64,000 nucleotides of DNA from Simmondsia chinensis (Eukaryota > Streptophyta > Magnoliopsida > Caryophyllales > Simmondsiaceae): positions 4,352,501 through 4,416,500 of the forward strand of contig JAGTTD010000008.1 of NCBI GenBank assembly GCA_018398585.1. The letters run 5' to 3'. Every line of letters starts with the position of its first letter. Within the stretch, counting starts at the first letter, position 1. A program made the translations under genes and the position numbers. The notes beneath the pieces are model-generated. The model saw nothing but the letters and a program-made list of their open reading frames with translations, did no database searches and was not told the DNA's origin. Shown here one piece after another: positions 793 to 63,399 of the stretch.

Positions 793-994
793 CAAATTGT
801 AGATGAGTCATGCACCAAAGATTAACAATAGCATCAGGATGGGTGACCTCCTGGATAATCCTCACCCTCAGGTTAGGGGCACTGGGAAACAGCCTCTCTT
901 CAGGTTAACACCCTGAAGGGGGAAAGCTGCGTACATCCGCCTCCCCAAACCCTGCGTAGGCGGGAGCCTTTGAGGCATTGGGTATGTTTTTTTT
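793..994 (+). mobile_element. 5S-rRNA-headed SINE (copy S1), head partly deleted
   Basis: Only the 3' part of the 5S head survives (CATCAGGATGGGTGACCTCC, the box C region, about 831-853). It is followed by the family tail, in which AACAGCCTCTCTTCAGGTTA and GCTGCGTACATCCGCCTCC are recognisable. It ends GGTATG plus a T-run. CTTATATGCACA (781-792) and CTTATATACATA (995-1006) form a plausible 10/12 TSD. The tail matches the 3' end of the RTE LINE at 8712-13378. Confidence 0.75.
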
Positions 995-1175
995 CTTATA
1001 TACATATAATATATATGTATGTATACATATATCACCATACTTGGAGCTCAGAAACAATTATAAAAGAACAAGAACGCAAGCCTGATCAAAAAAAAAAAAA
1101 AAAAAAAAAAGAACAAGAACGCAAGAATTTGTGGACAGGGAAAGAAGTTTCCAGAGAGAAATTATAAGGAGATGA

Positions 1176-9573: not shown

Positions 9574-12512
9574 ATGAACTTTATCAACAATGGAGCTCAA
9601 AACATGAGACCATCTCTAAATGGGGTTGGAACGGGTCAGGGAAGTTCGCGAGGTGAGGGGAGTCTGCGAATTGGGACATTAAATGTTAGTACGCTAACTA
9701 GGAAAAGCTTTGAAGTAGCCCAAATGATGGCTAGGAGAAAGATCAACATCATGTGTATTTAAGAGACTAGGTGGGTAGGCACTAAAGCAAGGGATGTGTT
9801 AGGCTACAAACTATGGTATTCGGGCCAAGTCAGGGGAAGAAATGGGGTAGGTATTATGGTGGATAGCTCCCTTAGGGACGAAGTAGTAGGGGTCACTCGG
9901 ACTAGCAATAGGATTATTAGCATCAAGTTAGTTTTAGGCGGGGAGATGTTAAACATCATAAGTGCATAAGCCCCACATATAGGACATACACAGCAGGAGA
10001 AGGCCAGTTTCTGGGAGGACTTAGACCTAACAATGCAGGGGATACCCCAGAGCGAACAAGTTGTGATTGGAGGGGACTTTAATGGGCACGTGGGAGCGAA
10101 CACAGACGGTTATGCATCCCACCACGGAGGATTTGGCCATGGAAGGAGAAATGATGAGGGCAAGGCTTTGTTGGACTTCGCCGTCACCTATGAGTTAACA
10201 GTGGTCAACACTTTCTTCAAAAAGCATGAGAACCACATCATCACCTATCAGAGTGGCGAACCAAAGACCCAGATTGACTACATATTACTAAGAATGAGGA
10301 CTCAAAAAGATTGCAAGGATTGCAAGGTTATCGCTGGGGAGGACCTCTCAACACAACACAGAGTAGTGTGTGCTGAGATTAGGATCAAGAGAAAGAACAA
10401 GAAGGCCATCAAACCATCACAACCACGCACGCGATGGAGGGAGTTGAAGGGGGAAAGCTCTCTAGTCTTTAAAGAAAGAGTTGAGGCTGTGCTTGGAGAG
10501 AAGTGTGAGGGAGATTCAAACCACATGTGGAACCAAGTTGCCCAAAGGTTCAGAGATGTGGCACGAGAAGTCCTAGGCGTATCTAAAGGTAGGGCACCAA
10601 AGAACAAAGAGACCTCGTGGTGGTGCAAGGAGGTACAAGAGAGGATTAAGGCGAAACGAGACTGCTTCAAGGAATGGGATCGTAGTGGTGATGAAGACAA
10701 GAGACAACAATATAAACAGGCTCAGAAGGAAGCTAGGATAGCAGTTAGAGACGCTCAATCCAAAGCCTTTGAGGAGTTCTATAAAAGGATGGATACCGAT
10801 GAGGGAGCTAGAGACCTCTATAGAATTACAAAGGCAAGGGAAAGGAGGATTAGAGACCTGGATCAAGTAAGGTGCATAAAGGGGGCAGTAGGACAAGTGC
10901 TCTTGGACAAGCAACAAATCAAAGCCAGGTGGAAGTCCTACTTCCACGATCTGTTTAATGAGAAGGGAGATACAGTTACTTCCCCAGAGGTTCCACGAAC
11001 AACAGCAGTGCAAGAGTCCCACGACCATTGCACCAGAATTAGACCCGAGGAAGTTCGGGAAGCATTGAGGAAGATGGGCAGGGGTAAAGTAGCCGGCCCT
11101 GACGGTATACCCATTGAGGCATGGAAATGTACTGGAGAAACGGGTATAAAATGGTTGATTGAATTATTCAACCAAATCCTCAAGGCAAAAAAGATGCCTG
11201 ATGATTGGTGGAAGAGCATACTAGTCCCCGTCTATAAGAACAAATGCGACATTCAGTGTTGTGCCAACTACAGAGGAATCAAACTAATGAGCCACACTTT
11301 GAAACTATGGGAGTGGGTCATAGAAGGAAGGCTTCGCCACCAAGCAGGAGTCTTAGAGAACCAATTTGGATTTATGCCGGGTAGATCTACAATAGAAGCC
11401 ATCCATCTCCTGAGAAGGTCCATAGAGTGCTACAGAGATAGACAAAAGCACCGTCACATGGTTTTCATTGATCTGGAGAAGGCATATGATAGAGTGCCGA
11501 AAGAAGTCCTATGGTGGGTCCTGGAGAGGAAAGGCATCCACGAGTCCTACATACAAGTCATCAAGGACATATACGAAGATGCTCAAACTAGTGTGCTCAC
11601 TACGGAAGAGGAGACAGACGCTTTTCCCATTACTGTAGGAGTACACCAAGGATCAGCCTTGAGTCCCTTTCTGTTCATTTTGGTGATGGATGAGCTCACT
11701 AGGCACGTCCAAGGGGATGTACCTTGGTGCATACTTTTCGCGGACGACATAGTCTTAGTGGGTGAGTCTAGAGTGGAGGTGAATGAAAAACTACAACTTT
11801 GGAGGTTGGCCCTAGAATCGAAAGGTTTAAGGCTCAGTAGATCTAAGAAAGAATATATGGAACTTAAGTTCAGCACCTCTACCACGCCAAGCACAGAAGT
11901 CGTACGGATTGGATCAGAGCACATACCTCAAAAAGCATGCTTTAAGTACCTAGGTTACATGGTGCAGATGATGGCGAATTAGACGCAGATGTCAACAACA
12001 GGATTAAAGTGGGTTGGCACAAATGGAGAAAGGCAGCGGCGATATTGTGTGATAGGAAATTCCCTCTAAAATTAAAGGGTAAATACTATACGACGGTAGT
12101 GAGGCCAGCTATGTCTTATGGGGAAGAGTGCCGGCCTGTAAAGTGTCACCAAACTCAAAAGATGAGAGTGGCGGAGATGAGAATGCTAAGGTGGATGTGC
12201 GGACACACAAGGAGGGACAGGATCCGAAATGAGGTCATTACAAGTAAACTGGGTGTCGCCCCAATAGAAGATAAGTTAAGGGAGCAACGTCTGCTATGGT
12301 TTGGGCATGTTAGAAGGAGACCCATCATTGCACCTGTCAAGAGATGCGAACAACTTCACATAGCAGACAGGAAGAGAGGGAGAGGACGGCCTAAGAAGAG
12401 CTGGATGGAGACAATACGACGGGATCTTACCTATCTCAACCTAAATGATGAGATGGCTCTAGACAGAGCTGTGTGGAGGACTAGGATAGGCGTTCCCGAT
12501 GTAGCGATGTAG
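9574..12512 (+). pseudogene. RTE LINE ORF: APE endonuclease plus reverse transcriptase
   Basis: The frame starts at ATG 9574. The endonuclease part shows LRIGTLNVSTLT, ETRWVG (catalytic Glu), GGDFNGHVG, QIDYILLR and STQHRVV, the usual APE-like series. The reverse transcriptase part shows GKVAGPDGIPIEAW, GFMPGRST, FIDLEKAYDRVP, GVHQGSALSPFLF and the catalytic FADDIVLV near 11737. The C-terminus (12009-12512) has RMLRWMCGHTRRDRIRNE and RGRGRPKKSW. Stops interrupt at 9760-9762 and 9967-9969, and a single-base frameshift lies around 11965-11975, so no functional protein is made. Plant RTE endonucleases are often mis-annotated as craniofacial development protein 2-like. Start choice is supported by the APE domain beginning ~30 residues later. 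Confidence 0.92.
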
Positions 12513-12649
12513 GAGCATCTGTCCGCTCGTCAGCCTGATCTAGTGCCACGAACCTATGATATGCCTATTCCAAAGCCTGGGCATATGGACTTGCGGTCCC
12601 AGGGGCGGCCATTAGGGATGTGGTATGTGGCATTGTGGGGCGTGGCCTA

Positions 12650-12900
12650 GATAGAAGAAAGAATATAAAATTGAAGAAGCTGCTCTTGAAGTGGTTCAGG
12701 CACGCCAGGAGGAGACCAACCACTGCTCCAGTCAGGTATTGCGATTAGCTTCGTACCACGCTAGGAAGAAGAGGTTGAAACAGGCCAAAGGAGGGACGAC
12801 TGCAGTCGTACGGCGGGACCTCACCCACCTAATCCCACGGAAGGAGATGGCCTCTGATAGAGCTAGACAGAGCTAGAGCTTGAGGGAGGACTAGCATAGA
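12650..12900 (+). repeat. Degenerate second copy of the LINE ORF C-terminus within its 3' region
   Basis: Sequence reading LKWFRHARRRPTTAPVR, then a run similar to the end of the ORF (AVVRRDLTHLIPRKEMASDR, translated from about 12800-12865), repeats the last ~80 codons of the ORF just upstream. It is shortened and out of use. It may reflect a template switch or an older duplication carried by the family. Confidence 0.6.
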
Positions 12901-13239
12901 AGGAGCAGAGGTAGCGGCCGCATACTGCTGATTATTCTGCTACTTATGGGTTCATAAGCGTCAAGGCTCATCAGGTTGTACCTATCTACCTATACGCCTA
13001 TCTGTCTATCTGTCTACTATCGGCCTATTTGCTTATTTGATTATTTGTGTATTTGCTTATTCGCTTATTTGTTTATTTGGCATATTTGTGTATTATAGCT
13101 GTCTTGGAGGGTAGGTTATGCCTCGTAGTCCCCTCTAGGGCATTTTTAGGCTATGACTTACTCTTTTTCTTTCATGACATATTACTCACAACCCATTGCT
13201 CACAGGTCTCCATGAGGTGACAAAGACTTTCCTCTCAAG

Positions 13240-13378
13240 TTGGAGGTCCTCGGAAACAGCCTCTCTTCAGGTTCACACCCTGAAAGGGGAAGACTGCGTA
13301 CATCTACCTTTCCCAGACCCCACTTTTGCGGGAGCCCTTGAGACACTAGGATTGTTGTTGTTGTTGTTGTTTGTTGTT
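13240..13378 (+). other. Conserved 3' tail of the RTE LINE
   Basis: It contains GGAAACAGCCTCTCTTCAGG, GACTGCGTACATCTACC and CCAGACCCCACTTTTGCGGG, and ends in (TTG)n. The same block, with the same order and spacing, ends the SINEs at 793, 17731, 33926, 37458, 37731, 61929, 62243 and 62803. It is presumably the site recognised by the RTE reverse transcriptase. Confidence 0.85.
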
Positions 13379-13399
13379 GTCATGTTAGCATAATTAATT

Positions 13400-15504: not shown

Positions 15505-16145
15505 GCCGGGAAGAGAGGGAGAGGCCGGCCAAATACAAATACAAATATAAATAAGATTTACATTACAAATAAAAATAGAAATTAGTTAGTGAACTTTTGG
15601 CGAGACCTTGCCGACCCCAACCCAAATAGAGAGATGGCCCTAGTTTAGAGCTCGGTGCAAGTTTAGGATAGGGTAACAGATTTAGCAGCGTTGGAGATAT
15701 GCGCACCTGTATCTGCTTGTATGCCCGTGAATACGCGCGATACGGGTTTAGTCGGTCAAACAGTGCCCCCTTATCCTGGGGGTGCAGGGTTATAGGCTGC
15801 TGATACTCTCATCACATTTTGCACTATCCGTCCTTCTCTCGTCTCTCTCCTGTCTTTTCTCTTCTCTCTTCTCTCTCTCTCCCTCTATCCCTTTCTCCCT
15901 CTCGATTTCTCATCACATGCTTTTTACATGCTCTACATGCTCATCTTACATGCTCTTCTTTCTTTCTTTCTTTCAGGCTCTTCATAACTATCAAACTCTA
16001 AAGACCAGGTTGGGGGTCCTTAGAAACAGCCTCTCGTCAAGGTCTCACTCTGATGGGGTAAGGCTGCGCACATCCTACCCCCCAAACCCTGCTCAAGCGG
16101 AAGCCCCTGTGGCACTGGGACTGTTGTTGTTGCTGTTGTTGTTGT
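15505..16145 (+). mobile_element. 5'-truncated RTE LINE fragment
   Basis: It opens at GGGAAGAGAGGGAGAGGCC, matching the RGRGRPKK coding segment of the RTE ORF. It is then interrupted by an AT-rich insert (15535-15598), and resumes with CCCAAATAGAGAGATGGCCC as in the ORF end. A pyrimidine-rich tract follows (15820-15975), then the conserved tail (GAAACAGCCTCTCGTCAAGG, CTGCGCACATCC), ending in (TTG)n. A possible TSD is CCTCATTTTATA (left) and CACCATTTATAC (right), which is weak. Confidence 0.75.
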
Positions 16146-17690: not shown

Positions 17691-17730
17691 TGCCATAAAT
17701 ACATGTTAGTTGTTTAAAAAACCTCCCTTA

Positions 17731-17969
17731 AAACAACATTCCTAGTGCCGAAGGGTACCTTCTAAGTAGGGTCTTCCGGGGGGGGGGGGGGGGTAGAGAT
17801 GTTTTGATGTACGCAACCTTCTCCTTTCAGAGTAAGTACCCCTAGCCTGAGAAGTGCAACACAAGGACTTTCTAGGAGGTCACCCATCTTGATACTGTTC
17901 TCGCCTCCAGCATGCTTAATTTCGAAATTCTAATGGAATCCGATGCTTTAATGCTAGTCCCTCTTAGGT
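17731..17969 (-). mobile_element. 5S-rRNA-headed SINE (copy S2)
   Basis: On the minus strand it reads an almost complete 5S head (GGATTCCATTAGAATTTCG, AAATTAAGCATGCTGG, then CAAGATGGGTGACCTCCTAG), a linker, and the RTE-like tail. Part of the tail is replaced by a 16-base homopolymer at 17778-17793. The TSD TTTAAAAAACCTCCCTTA is perfect over 18 bp (17713-17730 and 17970-17987). Confidence 0.85.
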
Positions 17970-27400: not shown

Positions 27401-28380
27401 TCTATTATATGTTGATGATATGTTAATTGCAGCTAAGGACATGACAGATGTTGATGATTTGAAAGCAATGCTGAAAAGCGAGTTCGAGATGAAGGACTTA
27501 GGAGCAGCTAAGAAGATTCTTAGCATGGGGATCAGTATGGACTGAAAAGCAAGAAAGTTGTGCTTATCTCAGGAGAAGTACATAGAGAAGGTTCTAGACC
27601 GATTTCACATGAAGGATGCTAAACCAGTTAGCAATCCCTTAGCAGCTCATTTCAGGCTTTCAGTATTGGATTCGCCTCAGACTGAGGAGGATGTCAGGTA
27701 CATGTCACAGGTCCCTTATTCTAGTGCTTTTGGTAGTATTATGTATGCTATGGTATGTACCCGTCCAGATATTACTTATGCTGTGAGCAAAGTGAGTAGA
27801 TACATGGCGAATCCAGGAAATGAGCATTGACACGCTATCAAGTGGATTCTCATGTACTTACGTGGCACTTCTAATGTTTGTTTGAAATTTGGGAAGAGTA
27901 AATGCTATTTAGTAGGGTATGTTGACTCAAACTATGGTAGATACCTCGATAAGAGAAAATCTACGTCTGGTTATGTGTTTTGTTTGGGAGACAGTGCTAT
28001 CAGTTGGAGAGCTTGTCTACAATCAGTTACTGCATAATCGACTACCGAGGCCAAGTATATGGCAGTTACAAAAGCGTTTAAGGAAATTGTTTGGTTGAGC
28101 GGTTTGATTAGTGAGATCAGTGTTGCTCAGGGTCTTGTTGGAGTTTACTGTGATAGCCAGTCAATGATTCACCTAGCTAAAGATCAGATAACACATCATG
28201 ACATAACGAAGCACATTGATGTCAAGCATCATTTTATTAGAGATCGGATTGATGAGTGGAAGGTGGAGTTAAAGAAGATTGGTACTGAAGATAATCCAGC
28301 AGATATGTTCACTAAAGTTCTTCCCCGCAAGAAGTTCGAGCATTGCTGGAATTTAGTTGGACTTACAGTTTCAGTTTGTT
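24407..28380 (+). pseudogene. Copia gag-pol polyprotein, multiply broken
   Basis: Gag starts at ATG 24407 (MTSTIKSKIEKFGG). Stops come at about 24449, 24565 and 24661, and a frameshift near 24945. The zinc knuckle is CNFCHKEGHIKKNC (about 25100-25140). Protease has WIMDSGCSYH (catalytic D-S-G, about 25270). The GAG-pre-integrase domain has MWHMRLGHMSDKRL and CEHCVYGKQKR. Integrase begins IHSDLWGPSRVASKGGSSY with FIDDYSRKVWVYF. RT shows LDQLEVKTTFLHGKLDE and the intact catalytic LLLYVDDMLIAAKD (about 27408-27449). RNase H includes VGYVDSNYGRYLDKRKSTSG, then HIDVKHHFIRDRIDE. All parts are present in copia order, so this is a worn full-length copy rather than a deletion derivative. Confidence 0.92.
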
Positions 28381-33909: not shown

Positions 33910-33925
33910 ATAAATGCATACAACT

Positions 33926-34159
33926 GGAACATACCTAGTGCTTCAAGGGCTCCCGCTTACGCAGGGTTTGGGGGGGCGGATTTACGCAGCCTTCCCCCTT
34001 CAGGCTGTTAACCTGAAAAGGGGCTGTTTCTCAGTGCCTCCAACCTGAGGGTGAGGATTTCCCAGGAGGTCACCCATCCTGATACTACTCTCGCCTAAGC
34101 ACGCTTAACTTCGGAGTTCTAATGAGATCCGGTGACAACATATTGGTACCCTCTTTGGT
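33926..34159 (-). mobile_element. 5S-rRNA-headed SINE (copy S3), best preserved
   Basis: Minus-strand reading gives 5S-like GGATCTCATTAGAACTCCG, AAGTTAAGCGTGCTTAGG, then AGGATGGGTGACCTCCTGGG. The linker CCTCACCCTCAGGTTGGAGG follows, then the RTE-like tail. Box A and box C of the 5S promoter are almost intact. The TSD is ATAAATGCATACAACT (33910-33925) and ATAAACGCATACAACT (34160-34175), 15/16 identical. Confidence 0.9.
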
Positions 34160-34489
34160 ATAAACGCATACAACTATATCACCAAAAAAAATGACAATAT
34201 ATTCAAAAAATGAGAGGAAAGTTTAAAGAAAATCGACTCTAAGCAAGTATAGAGAAAGGTATTAGGCAAGTAAAAGCATTAAGTGGGCATGCATATTAGG
34301 GTGTGAGGTACATTCAAGTACATGGAGTACCAAAATTGCAATGGAGATACAGCTGTAGATGGGGTACCGTTTTGTCACCCCTTTTTAAAGCATAAGGACT
34401 CATGCCAACTTTGCCCACCTCCCTACATTCACTTTCTTGTCCCCGAGCGGTCTTTAAATTTTAGGGATTTAACATAAGTTTAGCTGATT

Positions 34490-37457: not shown

Positions 37458-37681
37458 CACTATCCCAAGAGCTCTTGCCTAAACAAGGTTTAGAGAGTAG
37501 ATATACGCAATCTTGCCCTTTTGGGATGCTATCATGAAAAAAGGCTATTTTCGAGTACCTCTAACCTGAGGGGTGAGGATTTTCCAGAAGGTCACCCTTT
37601 CTGGTACTAATCTCCCCCAAGCACGCTTAACTTTGAAGTTCTAATGGGATATGGTGCTTTCGTGTTGGTATCCTTTTTGGT
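37458..37681 (-). mobile_element. 5S-rRNA-headed SINE (copy S4)
   Basis: On the minus strand CATTAGAACTTCAAAGTTAA, GCGTGCTTGGGGGAGATTAG and AAAGGGTGACCTTCTGG are 5S-derived, then linker and tail as in S3. The tail is diverged (TTGCGTATATCTACTC). TTATTATTAAAGAAAG (about 37433-37448) versus TTGTTATTAGTAAGGC (about 37687-37702) is a weak TSD candidate. Confidence 0.75.
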
Positions 37682-37730
37682 AGAAGTTGTTATTAGTAAG
37701 GCAAAAATTATTACCACCAAAGTAATGATG

Positions 37731-37981
37731 CAAAAAGCAACAAGAAATAACATATCCAGTGCCCCAAGGGTTCCTGCCTAAGCAGGATCTAGGGGGCAGA
37801 AGTATGCAGCCTTCCCCATTTAAGGTATTACCCCTAAAGAGAGATTGTTTTCAAGAGCCCCCCAACCTGAGGGTGAGGACTTCCTAAAAGATCACCCATC
37901 TTGATACTGCTCTTGTCCAAACACGTTTAATTTCGAAGTTCTAATGGAATCTAGTAACGGCATGTTGGTACCCTCTTTGAT
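37731..37981 (-). mobile_element. 5S-rRNA-headed SINE (copy S5)
   Basis: Minus-strand CCATTAGAACTTCGAAATTAA, CAAGATGGGTGATC and the RTE-like tail. The TSD is CACCAAAGTAATGATG (37715-37730) and CACTAAAGTAATGATG (37982-37997), 15/16 identical. It inserted only ~50 bp from S4 in the same orientation, but has its own TSD, so it is a separate insertion. Confidence 0.85.
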
Positions 37982-38299
37982 CACTAAAGTAATGATGTGT
38001 CTTACAAATAATAAGGGCTATAAAATTGCATTGAAAACTATAATCTTGCTCTGACAATAATAATTTTATCTTGACAATAATATTATCCCATTATTACTAT
38101 TATATTAATTTCCCTTTCAATCCACAGCATTTTTTTACAATTATTTCCAACTTCGCGGAAATCCACTTTCATAGGGTCAATTCAACCTTTCTTTTGAAAA
38201 TGATGGGGTTTTATACAAATTATCAGTCAAAATAGCTTGCTAAACAAATGAGCTTACGTTAGCAAAGCATAAGCATGATAATATTCGGGATTATTATGC

Positions 38300-39192: not shown

Positions 39193-42017
39193 TTAAGAGT
39201 ATGACCTAACCAAGCCAAAATTAACAAAAGATCTTGACTTGAAAAGACCACCAAATAGGGACCTAGATTGAGATTCTTGAGGGACTTCTTTTCTTTGTTT
39301 AGGGTTGGCCTTCACTTTCAAGATGGTTTGACCAATTGATTTTCGGATGGAATCGATCGTCTTGGCATCAACAGGGTATCCGGATGCATCACGCACGTAG
39401 AATGTATTTACGGCTTTGCCTCCTCGTGTTGTCACTTCTGCTTGGGTTACTGTGAGGCTGTTTTCTCGAAAAATGCGAGTTACATTAGATAGTAGGCCAA
39501 TTCTATCTGTTGTGCATAGTTCAAGCTTCAAGCCCTGAACCAAAGACAAGAAAAATAGAGTTCACGATCAGAAAACAAATCGACCCTCATTAATAAATAG
39601 GCAACTAAGAAAGAATCAGCCAAACAGCTTTAACTTTTAGGATGAGACGGTTCATTCAAATAGTATGGTATCCAACCCTCAAGCTATGAAATGGGACTAC
39701 TGCATCATCCACACCTCAAACCTCATGAGTTTTAACGTAAGGGACAATGTTAGAGCATAAAACTAGTCTCGAAACTTTATAAACGGTTTACTGCCTCGGA
39801 ATAGTCGGTTTCTTGACAGTATAATCTACGAAAGTCAAGAAAAGAATAACGACCACTGCAATCTATTTCAAAGGCATACCTCAGAAACTCTTCTTTTGAT
39901 TGCAGCTTCAAGACATTCAATCACCCTTTGTCTCTCTGCTTCTGACTTAACAGGGGATCCATCTATATGCCTAATGTAGTATTCCTGCACAAAAACAAAC
40001 CGATCAGGCAAACTGAAAACCTATTATTTTACCGCTAAAACAAGACGTCATTAATGGCATACTACGAGCACTGTTAGAGTATAAAACCATTCATAAGCCT
40101 TTACCCATTAGCTTAAGCTTTTGGGATAACCAGTTCCTTGATAGAGCCTTGTCGACCAAGAGTCACAACTTCGGTTGGCGCGTCAGAATATAAAATCATT
40201 CCTAGATCTTCACTCGTTGTTTAAACTTTTAAGACGATTAATCCCTTGATAAGCATGAACAACAGGAAATCCAATAGTTACCTGATAAGCTTCTGGCCCC
40301 TCTGCATCAACACTTCCATGGAACACAACATATTGCATATCAGTCAGCGTACAAACGGTATCGAACAGAAGCTTCGGTCTATCCTTACACCGAATCGTAA
40401 CCATCGAATAATCCTTATCATACCAATTCACAACACTAACATTCGGCTTTTGCCTCTCATCTAAGTCTTTTTCATCGCTAACGCGCTCGTAATCCCTATC
40501 TTCGAACATCAACTGATGAAGCCTTCTCTCTGTATGAGTACTATTATCAGACACTTCAGTTTTCGCTTCTTTTGATTGACTACTTCCGAGCACATTGCAC
40601 AAGAGTTCTTTGATACCCATAAGCCTATTCGGGTCAGTGATCGCTGACCCGGTTTCTTGATCAGTGATGTGCATCACGGCCGCAGCTCGGGTGTTGTGGG
40701 TCCAGACCTCGGCACTCACAACATTGCATTTGAGGTGGGCTAGGACTGCACTTAGCTCAGATAAGAGGCCTTGTCTGTCCCTCCCTATAAGCTCAATTGA
40801 AGTGGTGTCTGATGATGAAAGAACACCAACTGATCTTTCCATAAATGAAGAATCTGGACCCAAGGACTGATATGAGAAACACAGAAAATCAGATTATTCT
40901 GACATGAGAAACTACGGATCTGTTTGGTATTGTTTTTTATTTGCAACTTTTTGTTTCTCAAAAAATAAAACCATTGTTTCTGACACGAGAAAGCAGGGAT
41001 CTGTTTATCAAAGTTTTTTGGCACAATAAACTAAAGATCATTTTGGTATTCTTTTTTATTTGCAATTTTTTGGTTTTTAAAAAACCAAAACTGAGTTTTA
41101 AAAACAATTTTTTTCTCATTTTTGGCCTTATGGGAAAAATTCATCACGAGAAGCTAAGTTTTAGTTTCTTAGAAACAAAAAGTCGCAACAAAAACGATAC
41201 CGTACAGGCATTAAATATAAATGAAGCATAGCTGAGCATATGAAGTACCTTTTGGATGTAATCCAGAACTTCTTCATCAGTTATCTTATTCCCATCTTGA
41301 TCAGTAACATTAAATACTGGTTCAGAACAAAGGCAGAAGCAAATATTCTATCAAAAACCCATTTTTTATATAATGAAAAAAAATCAACTGTAAGGTTCAA
41401 ATATAGCTGAGGGGAGCCTACCATCCATGAACCATCCACCATCTGATGATATATAAGCCTTTGTAATGACAAGGTTAAGATCAGTCAGAATTTGTACAAC
41501 TTCAAGTAGTATTCCATGCCTGTTTGCACTGTCCACCTACAACAAAGAGAAAATATGCATAGAAAGTGTCAAGGAACTAACTTTTTCATAATTTTAAGCT
41601 GACGAATAAAGGTTCAAGAATACTTTTATACTCACACAAATGCCATGGGGCTTAAGGCATGGATAATGCACAAGGCACATTATTTAGAGTGAGAGTTGTT
41701 AGAATTCGAACTTATAAACCCTTAGTCAACAAGGTATGAATCATCCCAAAAGTGTAAGTTGATGAGTGAATGTTTAAGAATAGTTTTGAATTAGACGAGG
41801 CAATAAGATGGGGAATTACCTGTATCACTGTTACATTCTTGCAGGATTCATTGTCAATTGCAACTCTGTGGACAAGTAATAAAAATAAAATCTAAGTACC
41901 AACATGTAGTTTATGGAAGATAAACAAACTGAAGATGAAACTGTGTACAAACCTAGGTGGGTTCATTCTCCTGATAAGTTTCTCATACTCATCATCCACG
42001 TTCTGAGAATATCTCAT
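39193..42017 (-). CDS. ACR4: ACT-domain-repeat protein, ACR4-like, seven coding exons
   Basis: Exons (minus strand, 5' to 3'): 42017-41953, 41865-41820, 41536-41422, 41316-41249, 40866-40282, 39984-39880, 39534-39193. They join to 1326 nt, 441 residues plus stop, all with GT...AG introns and matching phases. The start [14 protein letters not shown] and the end [19 protein letters not shown] agree with Arabidopsis ACR4-type proteins (~450 residues). Four ACT domains lie at about residues 37-110 ([20 protein letters not shown]), 122-195 ([20 protein letters not shown]), 252-325 ([20 protein letters not shown]) and 331-405 ([20 protein letters not shown]). ACT repeats bind small ligands, usually amino acids. 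ACR proteins are thought to be sensors without catalytic activity, and the exact ligand is not shown by the sequence. The frame is fully open, so the gene is probably functional. Assignment to ACR4 rather than ACR3/6/8 rests on my recall of the termini. Confidence 0.93.
39610..39818 (+). mobile_element. TRIM element in ACR4-like intron 6
   Basis: LTR1 is worn (TTTTAGGATGAGACGGTTC, about 39633-39651), followed by TAGTATGGTATCC (PBS-like). LTR2 starts TGTTAGAGCATAAAAC at 39748 and ends TTGACA at 39818, preceded by a purine tract (GTAAGGGACA). It is antisense to the gene and takes up most of the 345 bp intron. Confidence 0.55.
40072..40258 (+). mobile_element. TRIM element in ACR4-like intron 5
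   Basis: LTR1 (40072-40141) reads TGTTAGAGTATAAAACC through AAGCTTTTGGGATAACC to CCTTGA. The PBS is partly deleted (TAGAGCC). The interior contains GACCAAGAGTCACAAC. LTR2 (about 40184-40258) reads CAGAATATAAAATCATTCC. Antisense to the gene. It ends close to the exon 5 donor at 40281/40282. Confidence 0.65.
40918..41210. mobile_element. MITE in ACR4-like intron 4
   Basis: The left end GGATCTGTTTGGTATTGTTT continuing TTTGCAACTTTTTGTTTCT is the approximate reverse complement of the right end, where AGAAACAAAAAGTCGCAAC precedes AACGATACCGTACAGGC. The inverted repeat is ~45 bp. Part of the left arm is duplicated inside (CATTTTGGTATTCTTTTTTA at about 41039-41058). The superfamily is probably Tourist or hAT. 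Confidence 0.6.
41595..41805 (-). mobile_element. TRIM element in ACR4-like intron 2
   Basis: On the minus strand an LTR-like CAACTTACACTTTTGGGATG (about 41744-41763) is followed by a PBS-side interior, CCTTGTTGACTAAGGGTTT, then a B-box-like TTCGAATTCT. A second LTR start, GTGAGTATAAAAGTATTC, lies at about 41618-41638. Same orientation as the gene. It fills most of the 283 bp intron. Confidence 0.5.
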
Positions 42018-51613: not shown

Positions 51614-51820
51614 GTCGGTAGGCTAAGTTGATTTAAAAATTAACAAGTTATTTTCTATTTTTATCTTTATTTTTATTTCTATTTTCTTTGTTTAAAAAAA
51701 AGAAAAAAAAAAGCCTATTTCTTTTTATTAGTTTATTTTTCTGTTTTATTATTTTTATTTATTTAATTTTTTTTATTTTAATTTTTTTTTATTTTTTTTA
51801 TTCTGGTTAATTTTACACCA

Positions 51821-54057
51821 TGTACGATTGGGGACCATTTCATTCCCCAAACGTATGTCGCACCCGTTGGGGTTACGTTACCCACCGTGGGTAATGTTAA
51901 CTTCGAGCTTAAGCCTGAGATCATCATCATGCTTCCCATTTTCTATGGGAAGCCAATTAAGAGCCCATACGAGCACCTTGATACATTCCTTGAAATTTGT
52001 GAAACATGCCACTATCAAGGTGTCTCAACTGATGCTGTTAGACTACGTCTTTTTCCATTTTTGTTAAAAGACGTAGCTAAGAGGTGGTTTCAATCCTTAC
52101 CCAAGGATGAAATCGCCATTTGGAATGACCTCCAACAACGCTTTCTAATCAAATTTTTCCCTAAAGCTAGAACAATGGCTATTAGGCGTGTAATAAATAG
52201 TTTTGAACAAAAGGACCAGAAGCAATTTCACGAGAGTTGGGACAGGTTCAAGGAGCTTCTTAGAAGTTGTCCCCACCACAGGTCTCTCAAGTGGGCTCTA
52301 GTGCAAAATTTTTATGATGGCCTCTGTGTATCTAACAAACAAATGGTTAATGCTTCATGAGGGGGATCATTTAACTAACAAGACGAGGACGAGGCATGGA
52401 CACTATTTGAGCGCCTCAGCGAACACTCTCTCGACCAAGCCTCTTCGATGAGGGTGGTTGAAGGGTGTATACATGGTGTCCGCGAAGTAGCACCCAAAAA
52501 TAACATCAACCGTAGACTAGACGCCCCCAGTAAGAAGATGGATCAGATTATGAACGTGCATGTGAATCCTACTAATGTGCGCATGGTCAATGCAGTTGAG
52601 TCATCAAGTGGTATTACTTTGTGTGACATTTGTTCGGGTGAGAACCATTCTATTCTTAATTGTTTATATGCATCACAATTCCCCGAATACGTGCAGGAAC
52701 ATGTTCATGCAGCTCAAGGATATTCGGGAAATAGCGACCCATTCTCAAACACCTACAATTTTGGGTGGCACAATTATCTGAACTTCTCGTGGAAGCAGGA
52801 CGCCAATCAATATCAACCCACAAAACAACAAGATCTCGGCTTTGCAGGTAACGTGCACCCTCCCATTTTTCAGGGAGGGCATACGTATGAAGTTCGACCT
52901 CACTCCAATGTTTCTCATAATGACCCTCCTCCTCCACCTCCAGGATTTATGTCACAGTTTGAGGAGCGTATGCTCCGCTTTATGGAGGACACCGTACAAT
53001 TAGTTCGGTCTCACTCGCAATATCGCCAAATTAGAGACCCAAATAGGGCAGTTGACCCAAGCACTGAATAAGATAGAGGAAGGGAGGTTACCCTCACAAC
53101 CACTCACAAACCTCACAGGATCAATTAGTTCTAACCCTAGTTTGCTCATTCATGAGCAAGCTCAGATTGTGTCGATTTCAGGAGAGGAGAACCTTAAGGA
53201 AGTAGGGGTTGAAACTGAGGAGGATGTGACTGCCCCTCCCACTGTTGACAGGGAGGGATCACAAAAAGGGTTTTTGAACCCGTTGTCCCTTTTCCTTTGG
53301 CCCTTATAGGATCGAAGAAGAAGGATGATCCAAAGAGGGTTGAGCTCATAGATGTGTTTAAGGACGTGAAGATCAACTTGCCGTTGATTGAAGCCATTAA
53401 ACGCATTCCTATGTATGCCAAGTTCCTCAAGGACCTTTGCACCAAAAAGAAGCACGCACAAGTGCATATCCCGAAGAAGGTCCGGCTCACCGAGAGGGTG
53501 AGCAGTATTTTAGTATCAGGTGCCCCACTCAAGTTTCGAGACCCCGGGCTTTTACAGTTTCATGCGTCTTAGGAGAGAGTTACACTAGCAGAGCCTTGCT
53601 AGATCTAGGAGCGAGTGTAAACCTCATCCCTTACTCAGTTTTTTGAGAATTGAGTATGGGAGACCTTAAGCCAACAAATGTTACACTTCAGTTGGCTGAT
53701 AGGACAAAGCAAGTACCTCGTGGGGTAGTGGAAGATGTACTTAACAAGGTTGACAAGTTTGTCTTCCTTGTTGATTTTCTCGTCTTAGATATAGGCCCTA
53801 CTCCTAGGCAAAAGCACAACGCTCCCATTATTCTAGGTTGACTGTTCCTAGCAACGGCTGACGCTGTGATTCATTGTAGGACAGGAGTGTTGGAGGTTTC
53901 TTTTGGAAATCTCAAGGAAAAATTGAAGGTCTCGAACTTTGTTCAACACCCTAAGACTGAGAACGAGTTGGAATGCTATAGGGTTGATGATATTGACTCT
54001 TTGGTAGAGCCGGGTAAGCCCGATTCTACTAAAAGTGATTATTACATAGGTGTTTAG
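51821..54057 (+). pseudogene. Athila-like gag and protease, RT absent
   Basis: Gag (51887-52360) shows PIFYGKPIKSPYEHLDTFLE, KDVAKRWFQSLPKDEIAIWN and FLIKFFPKARTMAIRRVINS, the retrotransposon gag fold. A stop at about 52358 is followed by further gag (52448-53071) with a zinc knuckle CDICSGENHSILNC and NFGWHNYLNFSWKQ, typical of this lineage. The protease (53560-54057) has the active-site ALLDLGASVNLIPYS (catalytic Asp present) and NAPIILG. Stops and frameshifts interrupt it. After 54057 no reverse transcriptase, RNase H or integrase follows, and no 3' LTR is seen, so the element is 3'-truncated or a deletion derivative. Confidence 0.85.
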
Positions 54058-54059: not shown

Positions 54060-54855
54060 CCAAATAATTCCTACATGTATATTCAATGCTTTTCTTTTAC
54101 TATTAAAGAGTTATACAACGAAAAAAAAAAAAATTGGAATATAGTTCAATACCTTTTATATTGGTAAAGATATAAATTAGAGTATAATTTGAGCTTTTAT
54201 GAATAATTTATGTCATCAAGGCACCAAATAGTACGATTACGATAATTCGAAACCTATATAACCCGACTCAAAATTGACCTAACCTAAGAACAGCTGAAAC
54301 TAAAGTGACCTAAACCTGAAATAACTAGACCCAAATCTAACCCGACTCAAGTATAAGTAAAATCGAAAGTAACCTGGGCCCAGATGGGTTTACCCAAGCC
54401 CAACAAGACTTAGGTTTACTGTAAACCTAAAATGACACAAACCCAAAGCGACACACCTAAACTGGATCCAGATGAGCAGATTGTCGCCTTTGGCGAATGG
54501 CTAATCCTTTTTTCTTTTTCTCTTTTGGCTTTTCTTACAATTGTTTGTTTACTTTTCCCATTGTCCTAGTATCAAGATGATTGGTTTAATTTTGATGCAT
54601 TTTGAGACATCAATTAGTAAACAAACACATTGAGCACCTCATCCTCTAAGATTTTGCCTTTCTATATTTTGAGAGGTGTGAAGTCATTCGAGAATATTCA
54701 TCACAATCATAAGATAGCTCCACTTTCAATCCTTTTGCCTCTATATGACTCTTTTCCCCAAGCTTAGTCCATGTTATTGCTCCCCTTGTTTCAAGGAAAT
54801 TTTCTTGTCTTATTCTTGTTTTTTTAAGTTTACAATAATAACTGCTGAAATGAAG
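54060..54855. other. Non-coding DNA
   Basis: Degenerate AACCCGACTC / GACCTAAACC words at about 54250-54470 suggest a low-complexity repeat. No gene. Confidence 0.4.
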
Positions 54856-55330
54856 ACAAAAAGTTATCGAGTTCGGTGTAGTGGGAAGCTAACCGCCTCG
54901 AAACGTAAGGTCTTGGATTCAAAACTCATTTCCTTCCTCCCTTTGATGTTGAATTCGTGACGGAAATGTGCCCCTTACAAATTTATCACAGATTGGAACG
55001 GATTTATAATGACACCTTTTGTCAGAAATGTTAAGTTCATAAGTGAATTGCGTCTCTTACAAATCTGTCAAAGATTTTAATGGAAACAAAAAGGTTATCG
55101 AGTTTAGTGCAGTAGGAGGCTAAACACCACGAAACGTAAGGTCTTGTATCTAAAACTCATTTGCTTGCTCCCTTTGATGTTGAATTTGCGACGGAAATGA
55201 GCCCCTTACAAATTTATCACAAATTGGAACGGATTTGTAATGATACCTTTTGTCAAAAATGTTAAGTTCATAAGGAAATTGCGCCCATTACAAATCTGTT
55301 AAAATTTTAATGGATTTGTGATGGTAAGTT
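54856..55330 (+). repeat. Tandem duplication of a ~230 bp unit with a tRNA-like head
   Basis: Unit 1 (54856 to about 55087) and unit 2 (about 55088-55315) match along their length. GTTATCGAGTTCGGTGTAGT versus GTTATCGAGTTTAGTGCAGT, then CGAAACGTAAGGTCTTGGAT versus CGAAACGTAAGGTCTTGTAT, then CCCTTACAAATTTATCACA in both. The head (GGTGTAGTGGGAAGC, then TCTTGGATTCAAAACTC) resembles tRNA box A/B strings of the SINE at 35702. Confidence 0.65.
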
Positions 55331-57424
55331 TCCTTTTATTAAATTTGTAGTGGAAAGTCCTGTCACAAGTCCATTACAAATTCTAACAAGTTTGTAAGGA
55401 GAACAAATTCATAAAAAATTTTAATTTTTGTGCTAAATCTTTCTCTTTACAATTCCATCACAAAAAAATGTTGTGGCAATTTGCAATTTGTGACTTTTTT
55501 CATCACAAAATTCCCGTTATAAAGAGTCCATTTCAAGAAATTCCGTTACTTACCGTCATTAATCCATTTCAATTTGAAACCGACTTTTTCTTTTACTGTT
55601 TTTTCTTTCAAAGTTAGTTTTTCTTTTTTTATATCCATAGTTCAACTTTATTTGTCACGTCTCTCAAAAATAAAAGTTATCAAGGCATTTTAGGGCCTTT
55701 TTAATACCGTGACACCTCTTTTCGACTTCGCTATTTGTTCATCGTACATGCGAATTCAGATAGTTCCTTCTCTAACTGCAGTGCAGCCTATCTTAAACTA
55801 ATAAACGCATAACACAGCTTAACCTGATTTTTGAGTAAGTACACAAGTATACTAATTTTTGTATTCGACTTTATGCATATTGCTTTTAGTTAAGTTTTCT
55901 TCTATTAGGCTTAAAGGAAAATTTTTTTTTTTTTTCATTACCTTGAATAAAGATAAAAATTAAAACTTGGGCGGGACAATTTGAATATAAAAATTGCACA
56001 AGCTTTTAGGTAGAGACAAACAAAAAATAAAAATAGTATAAATTAAGGGTATTGTTATTGACATAGCAAAATTGTTATTGTCAGAATAAGATTGTAATTT
56101 TTAAAGTATTTTCTTGGCTCTCATATTTTGCAAACTATGTCATTGCTCTATTAATAAAAATTTTTTCCTAGCAATAACAACTTTCTAAATTAAACAAGAG
56201 TTAGAACTAATACACCGATATTTTCAAACCTCCCAAATTCCATTCAGAAGTCCAAGTCTTCAACATCTGACTCCAAAAACATCCGAGCGTCAATAGCGTT
56301 TATGGATGCTAGAGTAAAATTAACATTAAGTTGATAGCAAAATTTTAATGGTCGGCTCGTGAGTGGGCTTAAGTTAGGTCAATATATAGGTTTGTATTAC
56401 GTTACTTGTATCTGACATTACAGGATCTTTAAAAATTACACTATTAACTTTATTTTAAGTTCACTAGAAGACTAAATTAAAACAACATAAATTATGATAT
56501 GCTTAAATATTATAATTAACAGTATATAAGAGATATTTTAAAACGTACTCACGAAAAGAGGTAAACTAGATTCACCTCCCACGTCTAGCTAGGCTAATTC
56601 CTTGACATCAACTTGGACTTTCATTAATAAGAGTTGTAATCGTTGGAATAAAAATTTTTATCATCAGAATAATAATATAACTTATAGAAAATAATAACTA
56701 TAAAATTGTCATGATAATAATAATTTTACTCTGATAATAATAACTTTGTTCTGTTAACAATATTACCCTAACTAATTAATAATTTATAATTAAAACCTTT
56801 CAATTAAAGAAATCAGCCGCCAACCTCAATAAAGGGACAAATCCTCATTATAATAATCATTAATTAATTAATCTCTCTATTAGTATTCGCATTAAAAAAT
56901 GTACATGTGTAGGATTCTTAGAAGGAGAACCGTACCACCGTTCGGGTAAGATGCCATCACAGAGCCGGACATAACCCCAAGTAAAGGACCTCCGAATTTT
57001 AGGCCCCCTAAAGTTTGGAAGTGATAGATTTTGAAATAACAATTGTGTATATTAATACGTTTTAAGAGAAATGTTATTATATATAAAGGGTCCTATTTAA
57101 AAATCTTGCCTGGAGCTCCAAGAATATCGGGACCAGCCCTGCGTCATCACCTCTTCTAGTTTTCTTGCTTGTGCTCAGGCAAACTGAGCTAGTGGAACTC
57201 GAAGGGGATAATTGATCTTTAGCCGAACCGTAAGAGTGTGATGCAACTCGTGTGGACAATGTCATAGTAATTCAGATGTTACTTTCTTTTTTGAAAAAAT
57301 AGATCAAATAGAAACAAAGGGATGAAATACACTTATTATCCTAAAATTTGGTGAAAATATTTTTCAGTCGACATATTTTATGTTTGAATTTTTCAGTCCC
57401 TTGCTGATAATGAAATAGTTATTT
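55331..57424. other. AT-rich non-coding DNA
   Basis: No gene recognised. Minus-strand ORFs at 56860-57265 are short; 57077-57265 is Ser/Thr-rich and without a domain. ATAATAACTTT words near 56680-56760 are low-complexity. Confidence 0.4.
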
Positions 57425-57436
57425 TGTGGATAGAAG

Positions 57437-58125
57437 GTGGCGGAGATGCGAATGTTGAGGTGGATGTGCGTCACACAAGAAAGGATAGGATCAGAAACGA
57501 CGTCATAAGAGGCAAATTGGTCGTAGCCTCCATTGAAGATAAATTGAGGGAGCAACGTTTAAGGTGGTTCAGACATGTTAGAAGGAGGCCAGACAGTGCT
57601 CCAGTTAGGAGGTGCGAACAACCCTGGACTACACCAGGCAGAAGAGGAAGAGGTAGGCCAAAGAAGAGATGGCTGGAGACGATCCGACAAGACCTCATTC
57701 ACCTAAACTTTCAGGAGGAGATGACCTTAGATAAGGCCCAATGGAGGGCTAGTATAGGGGTTATAGATGCTCTAATTAGAGTAGGGTAGTCTAGCCTACT
57801 AGTGCTAGGCCGTGACATCCTCCTGGCGCACTTAGGTTGTGTACTTGCTCTCACGAGCTACTATTTGCTATTTGCCTACCTATCCGTTGATTTATGCTCG
57901 TTGTGGCTTGCTGTGAGTTTGTTGTTTTAATCTCCATGTGTTGTGGCCTACTCATGGTTTCATGTTCTCTTATTGTCAGGTCACATGCTCTTTGCTGCAG
58001 ACCAGCGTCTCAGGCTGGGGGTCCTCGAAAACAGCCTCTCTTCAAGGTAGCCCCCTTAAGGGGGAAGGTTGCGTACATCTACCCCCCAGACCCTGCTTTT
58101 GCGGGAGCCCTTGCAGGCACTGGAT

Positions 58126-58156
<31 letters not shown>
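57437..58156 (+). mobile_element. 5'-truncated RTE LINE
   Basis: It begins inside the ORF C-terminus (HTRKDRIRNDVIRGKLVVAS, EDKLREQRLRWFRHVRRRPD, GRRGRGRPKKRWLETIRQDL; ORF 57424-57789). It runs through the 3' region to the shared tail (AAACAGCCTCTCTTCAAGG, GGTTGCGTACATCTACC) and ends in (TTG)n. The TSD is TGTGGATAGAAG (57425-57436) and TGTGGATCGAAG (58157-58168), 11/12. The C-terminal frame is still open, so it is younger or better kept than the copy at 8712. Confidence 0.88.
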
Positions 58157-58159
<3 letters not shown>

Positions 58160-58168
58160 GGATCGAAG

Positions 58169-61917: not shown

Positions 61918-61928
61918 TTATGTCAATA

Positions 61929-62178
61929 GTTCGTAAACCTAAGAGGGTATCAACACGCGTCCACTGGATCCCATTAGAACTCCAAAGTTAAGCGTGCTTG
62001 GGCAAGAGTAGTCCCAAGATGGGTGACCCACTGAAAAGTCCTCGTCTTGCACCCCTGAAGTTGAGGGTTCTCGAAAACAGCCTCTCTTCAGGGTAGCATC
62101 CTAAAGGGGGAAGGTTGCGTACATCCACCCCCTCAGACTCTGCTTAGACGGGAGCTCTTGGGACACCGGAATTATTGC
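61929..62178 (+). mobile_element. 5S-rRNA-headed SINE (copy S6)
   Basis: GGATCCCATTAGAACTCC, AAGTTAAGCGTGCTTGGGC (box A, 61986-62004) and AAGATGGGTGACCC (box C) are close to plant 5S rRNA. Then GTCCTCGTCTTGCACCCC (5S end), a linker, and the RTE tail (AAACAGCCTCTCTTCAGGG, GGTTGCGTACATCCACC). The TSD is TTATGTCAATA at 61918-61928 and 62179-62189. Confidence 0.9.
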
Positions 62179-62198
62179 TTATGTCAATAATATTAAAA

Positions 62199-62222
62199 CC
62201 GCCCTTGGGACACTGAAACTGT
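62199..62222 (+). mobile_element. Isolated SINE 3'-tail fragment
   Basis: CGCCCTTGGGACACTGAAAC is the last part of the SINE tail. It is followed by TTGCTTAAGTCAATAATA, the same flank as after S6 and S8. It is the remnant of a middle unit in a tandem array. Confidence 0.7.
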
Positions 62223-62242
62223 TGCTTAAGTCAATAATAATT

Positions 62243-62483
62243 AAACCTAAGAGTGTACCAATATGCAAGCACCAGATCCCATTAGAATTTCGAAGTTAAG
62301 CGTGCTTGGATGAAAGTCGTACCAAGGTGGGTGACCACTTGAGAAGTCCTCGTCTTGCACACTTCAGGTTGAGAGTTCTCGAAAACAGCCTCTCTTCAAA
62401 ATAGCACCCTAAAAGGGGAAGGTTGCATAAATCTACCCCCTTAAATTCTGTTTAGGCGGAAGTCCTTAAAATACTGGAACAGT
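62243..62483 (+). mobile_element. 5S-rRNA-headed SINE (copy S7)
   Basis: AGATCCCATTAGAATTTCG, AAGTTAAGCGTGCTTGGATG and AAGGTGGGTGACCACTTG from 5S. Then GTCCTCGTCTTGCACAC, linker, and tail. It ends CTGGAACAGTTGC, with TTATGTCAATAATATT after it, the same flank as S6. Confidence 0.88.
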
Positions 62484-62513
62484 TGCTTATGTCAATAATA
62501 TTGAAAAAAAAAC

Positions 62514-62545
62514 AGAGAGAGAGAGGGAGAGAGAGAGAGACAAGT
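62514..62545. repeat. (GA)n-rich microsatellite
   Basis: AGAGAGAGAGGGAGAGAGAG-type repeat. Confidence 0.85.
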
Positions 62546-62802
62546 GGGAGGAGAGTAGGGCGTAGCCCCACAAACTAGAGGGGGAAGAGAGCTGAGATAC
62601 GTGCAGGGATTGTATGTGCGCGTGGTCCTGAGCCACCCTTTGACACGTCCTGCCATGTTCTTTCATTTTTATGATACTCTCCATTTCCTTGTCTTCCGGG
62701 ATTCTCTTGTCCCCCTTTGCTTCTTTTTTATTATTCTTCTTTTTACCCCCTCCAAATTTATTTTTTTTTCCTTTTTTTTAGTATTTGGGGTGTCGGGATT
62801 AG

Positions 62803-63019
62803 AATTTCGAAGTTAAGCATATTTGGGCGAAAGTAGTACCGGATGGGTGACCTTCTGAGCAGTCCTTGTGTTGCCAACCCTATAAGGTTGGGAGTTCTCG
62901 AAAACAAACTCTCGGCAGGATTACACCTTGAAAGGGTAAGGCTGTATACATCCACCCCTCCCAGACCCCGCTTAGGCGGGAGCCCTTGAAGCACTCGGTC
63001 TGTTGTCGTTGTCGTTGTT
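62803..63019 (+). mobile_element. 5S-rRNA-headed SINE (copy S8), 5'-truncated
   Basis: It starts within the 5S head at AATTTCGAAGTTAAGCATAT, then GGATGGGTGACCTTCTGAG, GTCCTTGTGTTGCC, linker and tail (GAAAACAAACTCTCGGCAGG, GGCTGTATACATCCACC). It ends in (TTG/TCG)n. The TSD is GGGGTGTCGGGATTAG (62787-62802) and GGGGAGTCGAGATTAG (63020-63035), 14/16. Confidence 0.88.
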
Positions 63020-63399
63020 GGGGAGTCGAGATTAGCCTGTACGTGTTTTGATTATTTTCCAGGTTGCAATGGTCGGATATGGTCATTTTAGCAATTGGTG
63101 TTGGAAAAATCGGTTGACATAAGATTGGATAAGGTAGACTCTTCGTGTACTCTGGAATGCGAAGAGGAGGAAAGAGATTGTTGCACCATGAAAATTGCTA
63201 ACTTTACTGACAATCATCTCATTAGACTTATATGCTGGCCTGTTCCATCTCACAAATCCAATGTCCTTAACACCCTCCTTCCCCCCATATATGTGAATCT
63301 TGTTCAATCGTAACCCTCGCCTTTTCCGGTCCATTTCGGTTGGGCATTGGAGAGGCACTTAGCACAACAAATTCAAGTACGCACCTTATTTCGGCTGCA

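What the first reader, a model, noticed from the sequence alone, without database searches (positions are those of the whole stretch)
61929..63019. A plant SINE family built from 5S rRNA plus an RTE LINE tail
Copies at 793-994, 17731-17969, 33926-34159, 37458-37681, 37731-37981, 61929-62178, 62243-62483 and 62803-63019 share one architecture. The head is nearly a whole 5S rRNA with box A (AGTTAAGCGTGCTTGG) and box C (GGATGGGTGACC). A short linker follows, then a ~120 bp tail with AACAGCCTCTCTTCAGG and TGCGTACATCC. Several have long TSDs (18/18, 15/16, 15/16). 5S-headed SINEs are known in some animals (SINE3-type). I am not aware of a well-described plant family with this head and tail, though one may exist. 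Eight copies plus a fragment in 64 kb imply high copy number.
Basis: partly seen in the sequence, partly recalled or inferred. Interest (0 to 1): 0.9.

Follow-up and report, generated by a model that had tools for sequence, protein, structure and literature searches.

The report
Plant SINE with 5S rRNA head
This plant genome carries a very common small jumping gene made of a whole 5S ribosomal RNA joined to the end of a larger jumping gene (an RTE LINE), a combination described for animals but, as far as could be searched here, not for plants.

Summary
All eight listed copies are real, and the window belongs to an 831-Mb plant genome (an asterid by one gene tree) with many more copies. Twenty further copies, the best matches to one window copy, share the architecture. 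The head is a whole 120-nt 5S rRNA, colinear without gaps with this plant's own 5S genes except for the first 11 nt. It joins an RTE LINE 3' end directly, with no linker. Eleven of the 20 have perfect target-site duplications of 13-20 bp, against 0 of 380 mismatched flank pairs. Flanks of different copies are unrelated, so this is not Cassandra. RTE LINEs with the same 3' end lie in the same window. A 200-kb sample holds 7 head-bearing copies, roughly 29,000 per genome with wide error. Three subtypes exist; the one seen least (C, three copies) has a LINE-like tail and may be closest to the founder. Most likely it is a Pol III-transcribed SINE moved in trans by the RTE LINE; transcription and mobility were not tested. 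By promoter class it is a SINE3-type element. I found no plant member in the open papers searched; Repbase, SINEBase and most subscription papers could not be checked.

The parts
794..996 (+). SINE copy c1 (subtype B by its junction), head largely lost
   Evidence: own profile, E 3.7e-57; 5S query matches only nt 71-107; no convincing TSD
17732..17969 (-). SINE copy c2 (subtype A), tail partly deleted
   Evidence: profile; TSD 19/19 at 17713-17731 and 17970-17988; Rfam 5S 48.8 bits
33926..34159 (-). SINE copy c3 (subtype B)
   Evidence: profile; TSD 15/16 at 33910-33925 and 34160-34175; Rfam 5S 67 bits
37453..37681 (-). SINE copy c4 (subtype B)
   Evidence: profile; Rfam 5S 66.2 bits; no convincing TSD
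37731..37981 (-). SINE copy c5 (subtype B)
   Evidence: profile; TSD 15/16 at 37715-37730 and 37982-37997; Rfam 5S 46.5 bits
61937..62178 (+). SINE copy c6 (subtype A)
   Evidence: profile; TSD 11/11 at 61918-61928 and 62179-62189 (eight unexplained bases between the 5' TSD and the usual start); Rfam 5S 56.4 bits
62201..62244 (+). third partial unit (SINE tail end plus flank) of the tandem duplication holding c6 and c7
   Evidence: TRF period 308, 61934-62507, and period 47, 62157-62247; profile fragment 62201-62227, E 0.1
62245..62488 (+). SINE copy c7 (subtype A)
   Evidence: profile; Rfam 5S 56 bits; part of the tandem duplication
62803..63017 (+). SINE copy c8 (subtype C, 5'-truncated at about 5S nt 40, LINE-like end of TTG/TCG units)
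   Evidence: profile; TSD 16/18 at 62785-62802 and 63018-63035; tail groups with tail-only elements
9970..13380 (+). RTE-type LINE copy (broken reading frames; 5' limit not determined): endonuclease/RT ORF 9970-11982, C-terminal ORF 11946-12512, 3' end with the SINE-type tail 13223-13364 and a TTG microsatellite
   Evidence: RVT_1 PF00078 E 1.8e-33; Exo_endo_phos_2 E 1.4e-4, below its cut-off; ORFs; tail hit E 6.5e-34; sequence
57388..58160 (+). 5'-truncated RTE-type LINE: C-terminal ORF 57388-57789, 3' end with SINE-type tail 58006-58138 and a TTG microsatellite
   Evidence: 66% protein identity over 102 residues to the C-terminus of the 9970 LINE
16006..16145 (+). tail-only element ending in TTG units, probably a third RTE LINE 3' end
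   Evidence: tail hit E 1.9e-28; weak RTE protein match upstream, E 1.6e-4

Best explanation
It is a SINE family of about 245 bp. The head is a complete 5S rRNA that supplies the internal Pol III promoter (box A, intermediate element, box C); the 3' ~120 bp is the 3' end of the plant's RTE-type LINEs. Proposed working: Pol III starts at the old 5S +1 position, reads through the 5S and the RTE tail (the 242-nt consensus has no internal TTTT) and stops in a T run at the 3' end; the RTE protein then recognises the tail and inserts the copy by target-primed reverse transcription. The likely birth is an RTE reverse transcriptase jumping from its own RNA tail to the 3' end of a 5S rRNA. Shown: architecture, match of the head to the host's own 5S, LINE origin of the tail, dispersed insertions with long TSDs, high copy. 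Inferred: transcription, RTE mobilisation, template switch.
For: Consensus of 20 genome copies matches the plant's own 5S gene without gaps over nt 12-120 at 101/109, promoter region nt 50-97 at 46/48. T39 and A49 of the host's own 5S occur in 34 of 34 readable SINE heads, of 35. The junction falls at the mature 5S 3' end...GCACCCCT, followed directly by the RTE tail. SINE tails align at 70-86% (c2: 25-28 bp only, 86-88%) to three tail-only elements of the window, two of which follow RTE coding sequence; 6 of 14 tail-only hits in the 200-kb sample have RTE protein upstream, two of the six behind the same LINE. 11 of 20 genome copies have perfect TSDs of 13-20 bp, against 0 of 380 mismatched flank pairs. 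With TSD-defined starts box A lies at 49 nt in c3, c5, L010, L014, L023 and at 48 in c2, L015, L022, L026, L027, as in the gene (49). T runs of 4 or more occur within 18 nt upstream of the TSD in 8 of 18 sites against 13.6% background (P 0.0014), and 13 of 18 TSDs start with T, resembling the plant RTE signature in PMC13295347 (passages).
Against: No transcript data. 6 of 20 genome copies had no convincing TSD. TSD-defined starts in L013, L017, L019 and L011 put box A at 51, 47, 51 and 40, and in L012, L021 and L025 the box A pattern was not found. A T4 run near the 3' end was seen in 13 of 20, counting flank and without a background control. A shared tail hairpin gained no covariation support (a small 3' hairpin only weak). 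The first T of a TSD is partly ambiguous because the SINE ends in T. The base before the TSD is A in only 6 of 18. Copies differ from consensus by 4-20%, so recent activity is not shown.
Confidence: 0.9

Rival explanations
1. The copies are LTRs or solo LTRs of a Cassandra-type TRIM, the known plant retrotransposon with 5S in its LTRs.
For: 5S heads; c4/c5 and c6/c7 lie in tandem in the same orientation, as two LTRs would; two genome loci have some repeat between their flanks.
Against: TSDs are 13-20 bp and flank single units of about 245 bp; the related TRIMs Helenus and Ajax make 4-5 bp TSDs (PMC10886601, passage). Flanks of 20 copies are unrelated (4 of 780 pairs). The 3' half is LINE sequence. 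c5 alone has its own TSD; c4/c5 are 69% and c6/c7 79% identical. A primer-binding site and polypurine tract were not searched for.
Confidence: 0.02
2. Dispersed 5S pseudogenes that chance to lie beside separate RTE fragments.
For: RTE-type tails without a head are commoner than heads in the sample (14 against 7); one head-only fragment exists (L036).
Against: The same few junctions recur in unlinked loci; all 6 Rfam 5S hits in the 200-kb sample are joined to the tail; TSDs bracket the composite.
Confidence: 0.01
3. The subtypes are separate births: C (tail ending in TTG units, LINE-like) and A/B (own tail, T-rich end) each arose by an independent 5S-RTE fusion.
For: Tail tree: a starred split (96/96) puts the 30 A and B tails with 3 tail-only pieces on one side and the 3 C tails with 17 tail-only rows on the other. 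C has a different junction (GCCAACCCTNTAAGG or close). C keeps host 5S at nt 20-25 in 11 of 12 cells against 72 of 150 (A) and 5 of 18 (B); at nt 81 all 25 A heads share the host's A, all 3 C heads have G.
Against: A, B and C share a C at nt 79 where the host 5S has T (A 23 of 25, B 6 of 6, C 2 of 2 readable). Elsewhere C is not closer to host 5S: promoter region 121/143 against 1104/1199 in A. Only three C copies, short alignments, bootstrap not settled, c1 labelled A in that run. The search for more C copies did not complete.
Confidence: 0.3
4. It is an ordinary tRNA-headed plant SINE (Au-like or Angio-domain type) misread because it shares the RTE-like tail.
Against: Heads reach Rfam's 5S gathering score in 6 of 8 window copies and 20 of 20 genome copies; ARAGORN finds no tRNA in the window or the 200-kb sample, though it would miss decayed heads.
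Confidence: 0.01

Closest known systems
SINE3-type 5S rRNA-derived SINEs of animals (zebrafish SINE3, AmnSINE1, lepidopteran HaSE3, springhare Ped-1; 5S-related SINEs are also claimed in Aspergillus, PMC5063351, search listing)
   Same: 5S rRNA-derived head and LINE-derived 3' end. Ped-1 has a BovB (RTE-clade) tail (table in PMC3747384, passage).
   Different: Plant host; head shares variants of the host plant's own 5S, which suggests an independent origin; head is the whole 120-nt 5S with the LINE tail directly behind it. No animal sequence was aligned here.
Plant tRNA-headed SINEs with RTE-like 3' ends (legume SINEs; Au and Angio-domain SINEs, their RTE link recalled)
   Same: Legume SINEs share 3' ends with RTE LINEs, end in T's and show a T stretch upstream of TSDs (PMC13295347, passages). 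Au ends in T(2-5) (PMC3747384, table passage, where its LINE tail is marked not determined).
   Different: Head is 5S rRNA, not tRNA. [quoted passage not shown]
Cassandra TRIM retrotransposons
   Same: Plant mobile element carrying a 5S promoter.
   Different: No LTRs found, long variable TSDs, LINE tail, flanks not shared.

Membership tests
SINE (order) | short non-coding element with internal Pol III promoter of small-RNA origin | tested here: met
   Rfam 5S heads in 20 of 20 genome copies; promoter region 46/48 to own 5S. Sequence only; transcription not tested.
SINE (order) | 3' end shared with a LINE of the same genome | tested here: met
   70-86% identity to LINE 3' ends in the window; RTE protein upstream of such tails
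SINE (order) | dispersed copies flanked by TSDs of variable length | tested here: met
   11 of 20 perfect TSDs of 13-20 bp, 0 of 380 in the control; 41 listed matches on 20 contigs
SINE3 (5S rRNA-derived SINE class) | 5S rRNA-derived head | tested here: met
SINE3 (5S rRNA-derived SINE class) | common descent with the animal SINE3 families | tested here: inconclusive
   head shares T39 and A49 with the host plant's own 5S, which speaks against it; no animal sequence was aligned. The class is said to have arisen several times (PMC10886601, passage).
Angio-domain SINE superfamily | conserved 37-bp 3' Angio-domain | not testable with these tools
   sequence of the domain not held; its existence is taken from PMC9033089 (passage)
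Cassandra TRIM | 5S inside paired LTRs | tested here: not met
   no LTR-like repeats around window copies; flanks of 20 copies unrelated
Cassandra TRIM | primer-binding site and polypurine tract | not tested
   not searched for
RTE-mobilised retroposon | T stretch about 10 nt upstream of a TSD that begins with T, next to A | tested here: inconclusive
   T4 runs in 8 of 18 sites against 13.6% background, first base T in 13 of 18, but preceding base A in only 6 of 18 and first T partly ambiguous

The most novel reading that the evidence does not exclude
A plant-lineage-specific SINE3 whose birth can be read step by step: an RTE reverse transcriptase switched from its own tail to the 3' end of the host's 5S rRNA, giving a founder (subtype C) still close to both parents; later forms (A, B) gained their own tail and a T-run end. 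The A heads carry the host's current nt 81, so heads may have been renewed from the evolving 5S genes, much as Cassandra is reported to mirror 5S changes (PMC10853983).
Probability: 0.25. Interest if true: 0.75.

Novelty: new variant of a known kind. Interest (0 to 1): 0.6.

Why it matters
Plant SINEs are described as tRNA-derived (PMC9033089, passage), and 5S promoters in SINEs are described for animals (PMC10853983, passage). A high-copy 5S-headed SINE in a plant shows that plant LINE machinery can capture the 5S promoter too. The speculation that Cassandra began as a SINE3 inserted in an LTR (PMC10886601, passage) needs such elements in plants. With LINE parents, 5S genes and subtypes in one assembled genome, SINE birth by template switching can be tested directly. 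It also warns annotators that many 5S-like hits in such a genome are SINEs, not rRNA genes.

Tried and rejected
Cassandra, chance adjacency and tRNA-SINE readings were tested and rejected. Species: not identified; a tree of a 226-residue ACR4-like piece with 23 named proteins that I chose from the 120 listed (1,271 found) puts the window with two Lamiales and two Asterales sequences (95/87). RTE protein hits in the listed 120 reach at most 55% identity and do not name the plant. Tail hairpin: no covariation support. Literature: ten answered searches of open-access full text listed no paper that by title and abstract start is about a plant 5S-derived SINE; the lists were capped (25 of 30; 25 of 768; 15 of 129,952; 19 of 21). 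I saw passages only of PMC10886601, PMC10853983, PMC9033089, PMC13295347, PMC3747384, PMC11490119 and PMC11709435; no paper was read whole. Subscription journals, Repbase, SINEBase and Dfam were not searched. My first reading of T39 as SINE-specific was wrong: the host's own 5S has it.

Full report
Observation. All eight listed copies are in the window. A profile made from them recovers the eight (E 1.5e-50 or better), three tail-only elements and a marginal 27-bp piece; 20 shuffled windows give nothing. Rfam's 5S model reaches its gathering score in 6 of 8. The other two are c1, whose head is mostly lost, and c8, cut at about nt 40 of the 5S. TSDs: c2 19/19, c3 15/16, c5 15/16, c8 16/18, c6 11/11; c1 and c4 none convincing; c7 lies in a 308-bp tandem duplication with c6.

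Genome context. The window is part of an 831,394,711-base plant assembly of 35 contigs. The c6 copy as query gave 6,598 first-look candidates, of which 40 were scored; 41 matches on 20 contigs are listed, the 100% row being c6 itself, the best other 89%, the last (80%) c7. The 20 best other matches were fetched with 400-bp flanks, so they lean towards subtype A. All 20 carry an Rfam 5S match. An automatic search found perfect TSDs of 13-20 bp in 11 of 20, near-perfect ones (14/16, 14/15, 15/16) in 3 more, and none convincing in 6. Pairing the 5' flank of one copy with the 3' flank of another gave 0 perfect repeats of 13 bp or more in 380 pairs; the looser score that 14 of 20 true pairs reach was reached by 5 of 380. 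Flanks of different copies are unrelated: 4 weak hits in 780 pairs, two of them between the flanks of one locus. L011 (48 bp, 90%) and L022 (236 bp, 68%) have some repeat between their own flanks, unexplained.

Head. The plant's own 5S genes were found in arrays on contig 8. 50 of 56 units read from eight overlapping loci are identical; because the loci overlap these are not 56 independent units. The 20-copy SINE consensus matches this gene without gaps: nt 1-11 3/11, nt 12-49 33/38, promoter region nt 50-97 46/48, nt 98-120 22/23. Thus the head is a whole 5S rRNA whose first 11 nt differ at equal length. With TSD-defined starts box A stands at 49 nt in c3, c5, L010, L014 and L023, at 48 in c2, L015, L022, L026 and L027, at 51, 47, 51 and 40 in L013, L017, L019 and L011, and could not be read in L012, L021 and L025; in the gene it is at 49. 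A start near the 5S +1 position is what an RNA made from the 5S promoter would give. Box boundaries are recalled, not from a call.

Tail. The 3' ~120 bp of the SINEs align at 70-86% to three tail-only elements in the same window (c2 only over 25-28 bp because of a deletion; c4 only to one of the three). One of these ends an RTE-type LINE with a reverse-transcriptase domain (PF00078, E 1.8e-33), one follows a C-terminal RTE reading frame, the third has a weak match. In the 200-kb sample 6 of 14 tail-only hits have RTE protein upstream, two of them behind one LINE. A simple box B pattern occurs upstream of 1 of 17 tail-only elements (L042_5138), where a 12-bp repeat, ATCAATTTGCTT, on both sides of the tail puts it outside the element (read). 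ARAGORN finds no tRNA in the sample. The LINEs end in TTG repeats; most fetched SINEs end in AATGTTGC or close, plus T's.

Copy number. Twenty 10-kb stretches at fixed positions on six contigs hold 7 head-bearing matches, one a head-only fragment and one cut by the stretch's end, and 14 tail-only ones. Seven in 200 kb extrapolate to about 29,000 in the genome (Poisson 95% about 12,000-60,000; my arithmetic). The sample is small and not fully random; the window, picked for these copies, is three to four times denser.

Subtypes. A has the full 5S 3' end; B lacks 8 nt at the junction; C has GCCAACCCTNTAAGG or close there and ends in TTG units. In a tail tree a starred split (96/96) groups the 30 A and B tails with 3 tail-only pieces, against 17 tail-only rows and all three C tails (bootstrap not settled; c1 labelled A there, B). 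Over 35 heads, C keeps the host 5S at nt 20-25 in 11 of 12 cells, A in 72 of 150, B in 5 of 18; but in the promoter region C (121/143) and B (226/269) match less than A (1104/1199), whose copies were mostly chosen as close matches. C79, which the host lacks, is in 23 of 25 A, 6 of 6 B and 2 of 2 readable C. A simple reading is one founder like C with A and B derived; separate births are not excluded. At nt 81 A heads have the host's A in 25 of 25, C heads G in 3 of 3, B mixed (3 G, 2 A, 1 C), which could mean that heads were renewed from the changing host 5S, or could be chance.

Mechanism. The RTE signature described for plants (T stretch about ten bases upstream, TSD starting with T next to A; PMC13295347, passages) is partly seen: T4 runs in 8 of 18 TSD sites (13 of 20 genome and 5 of 8 window copies had a usable TSD) against 13.6% background, first base T in 13 of 18. 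The preceding base is A in only 6 of 18, and the first T is partly ambiguous. No covariation supports a long tail hairpin. Transcription, RTE mobilisation and template switching are inferences.

Known or new. 5S-derived SINEs (SINE3 type) are known from animals and are said to have arisen repeatedly (PMC10886601, passages); springhare Ped-1 pairs a 5S head with a BovB tail (PMC3747384, table passage). Plant SINEs are described as tRNA-derived (PMC9033089, passage). Ten open-access searches, some with capped lists, showed no plant 5S SINE; repeat databases and most subscription papers were out of reach. I file it as a new variant of a known kind: it is built like a SINE3, probably with an origin of its own in a plant.

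Noticed in passing
window 16853-16961 (+): U2 snRNA-like sequence (Rfam RF00004, 71.6 bits), cut short and followed by an A-rich stretch: probably a U2 retropseudogene.
   Followed up: no
window 39193-40893 (-): Exon pieces of an ACR4-like ACT-domain protein gene; used for the asterid placement.
   Followed up: partly
window 13745-14935 (+), 19722-20640 (-), 25155-27545 (+), 51782-53071 (+): Open frames that read like L1-type RT, Copia pol and Gypsy gag pieces (judged by eye, no family search).
   Followed up: no
window 54849-55314: 231-bp unit in two tandem copies, 87% matches, not explained.
   Followed up: no
L015:127-248: MIR399 microRNA precursor match (80.4 bits) about 140 bp from one end of a 5S-SINE copy.
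   Followed up: no
window 61934-62507: 308-bp tandem duplication of a SINE with flank, plus a third partial unit, perhaps from unequal exchange.
   Followed up: partly
L036:7838-7896 (-): 5S-like head fragment without tail, close to the host 5S (27 of 27 readable promoter positions).
   Followed up: partly
L022 (flanks of the SINE copy): 236-bp direct repeat at 68% identity between the two flanks, not explained.
   Followed up: no
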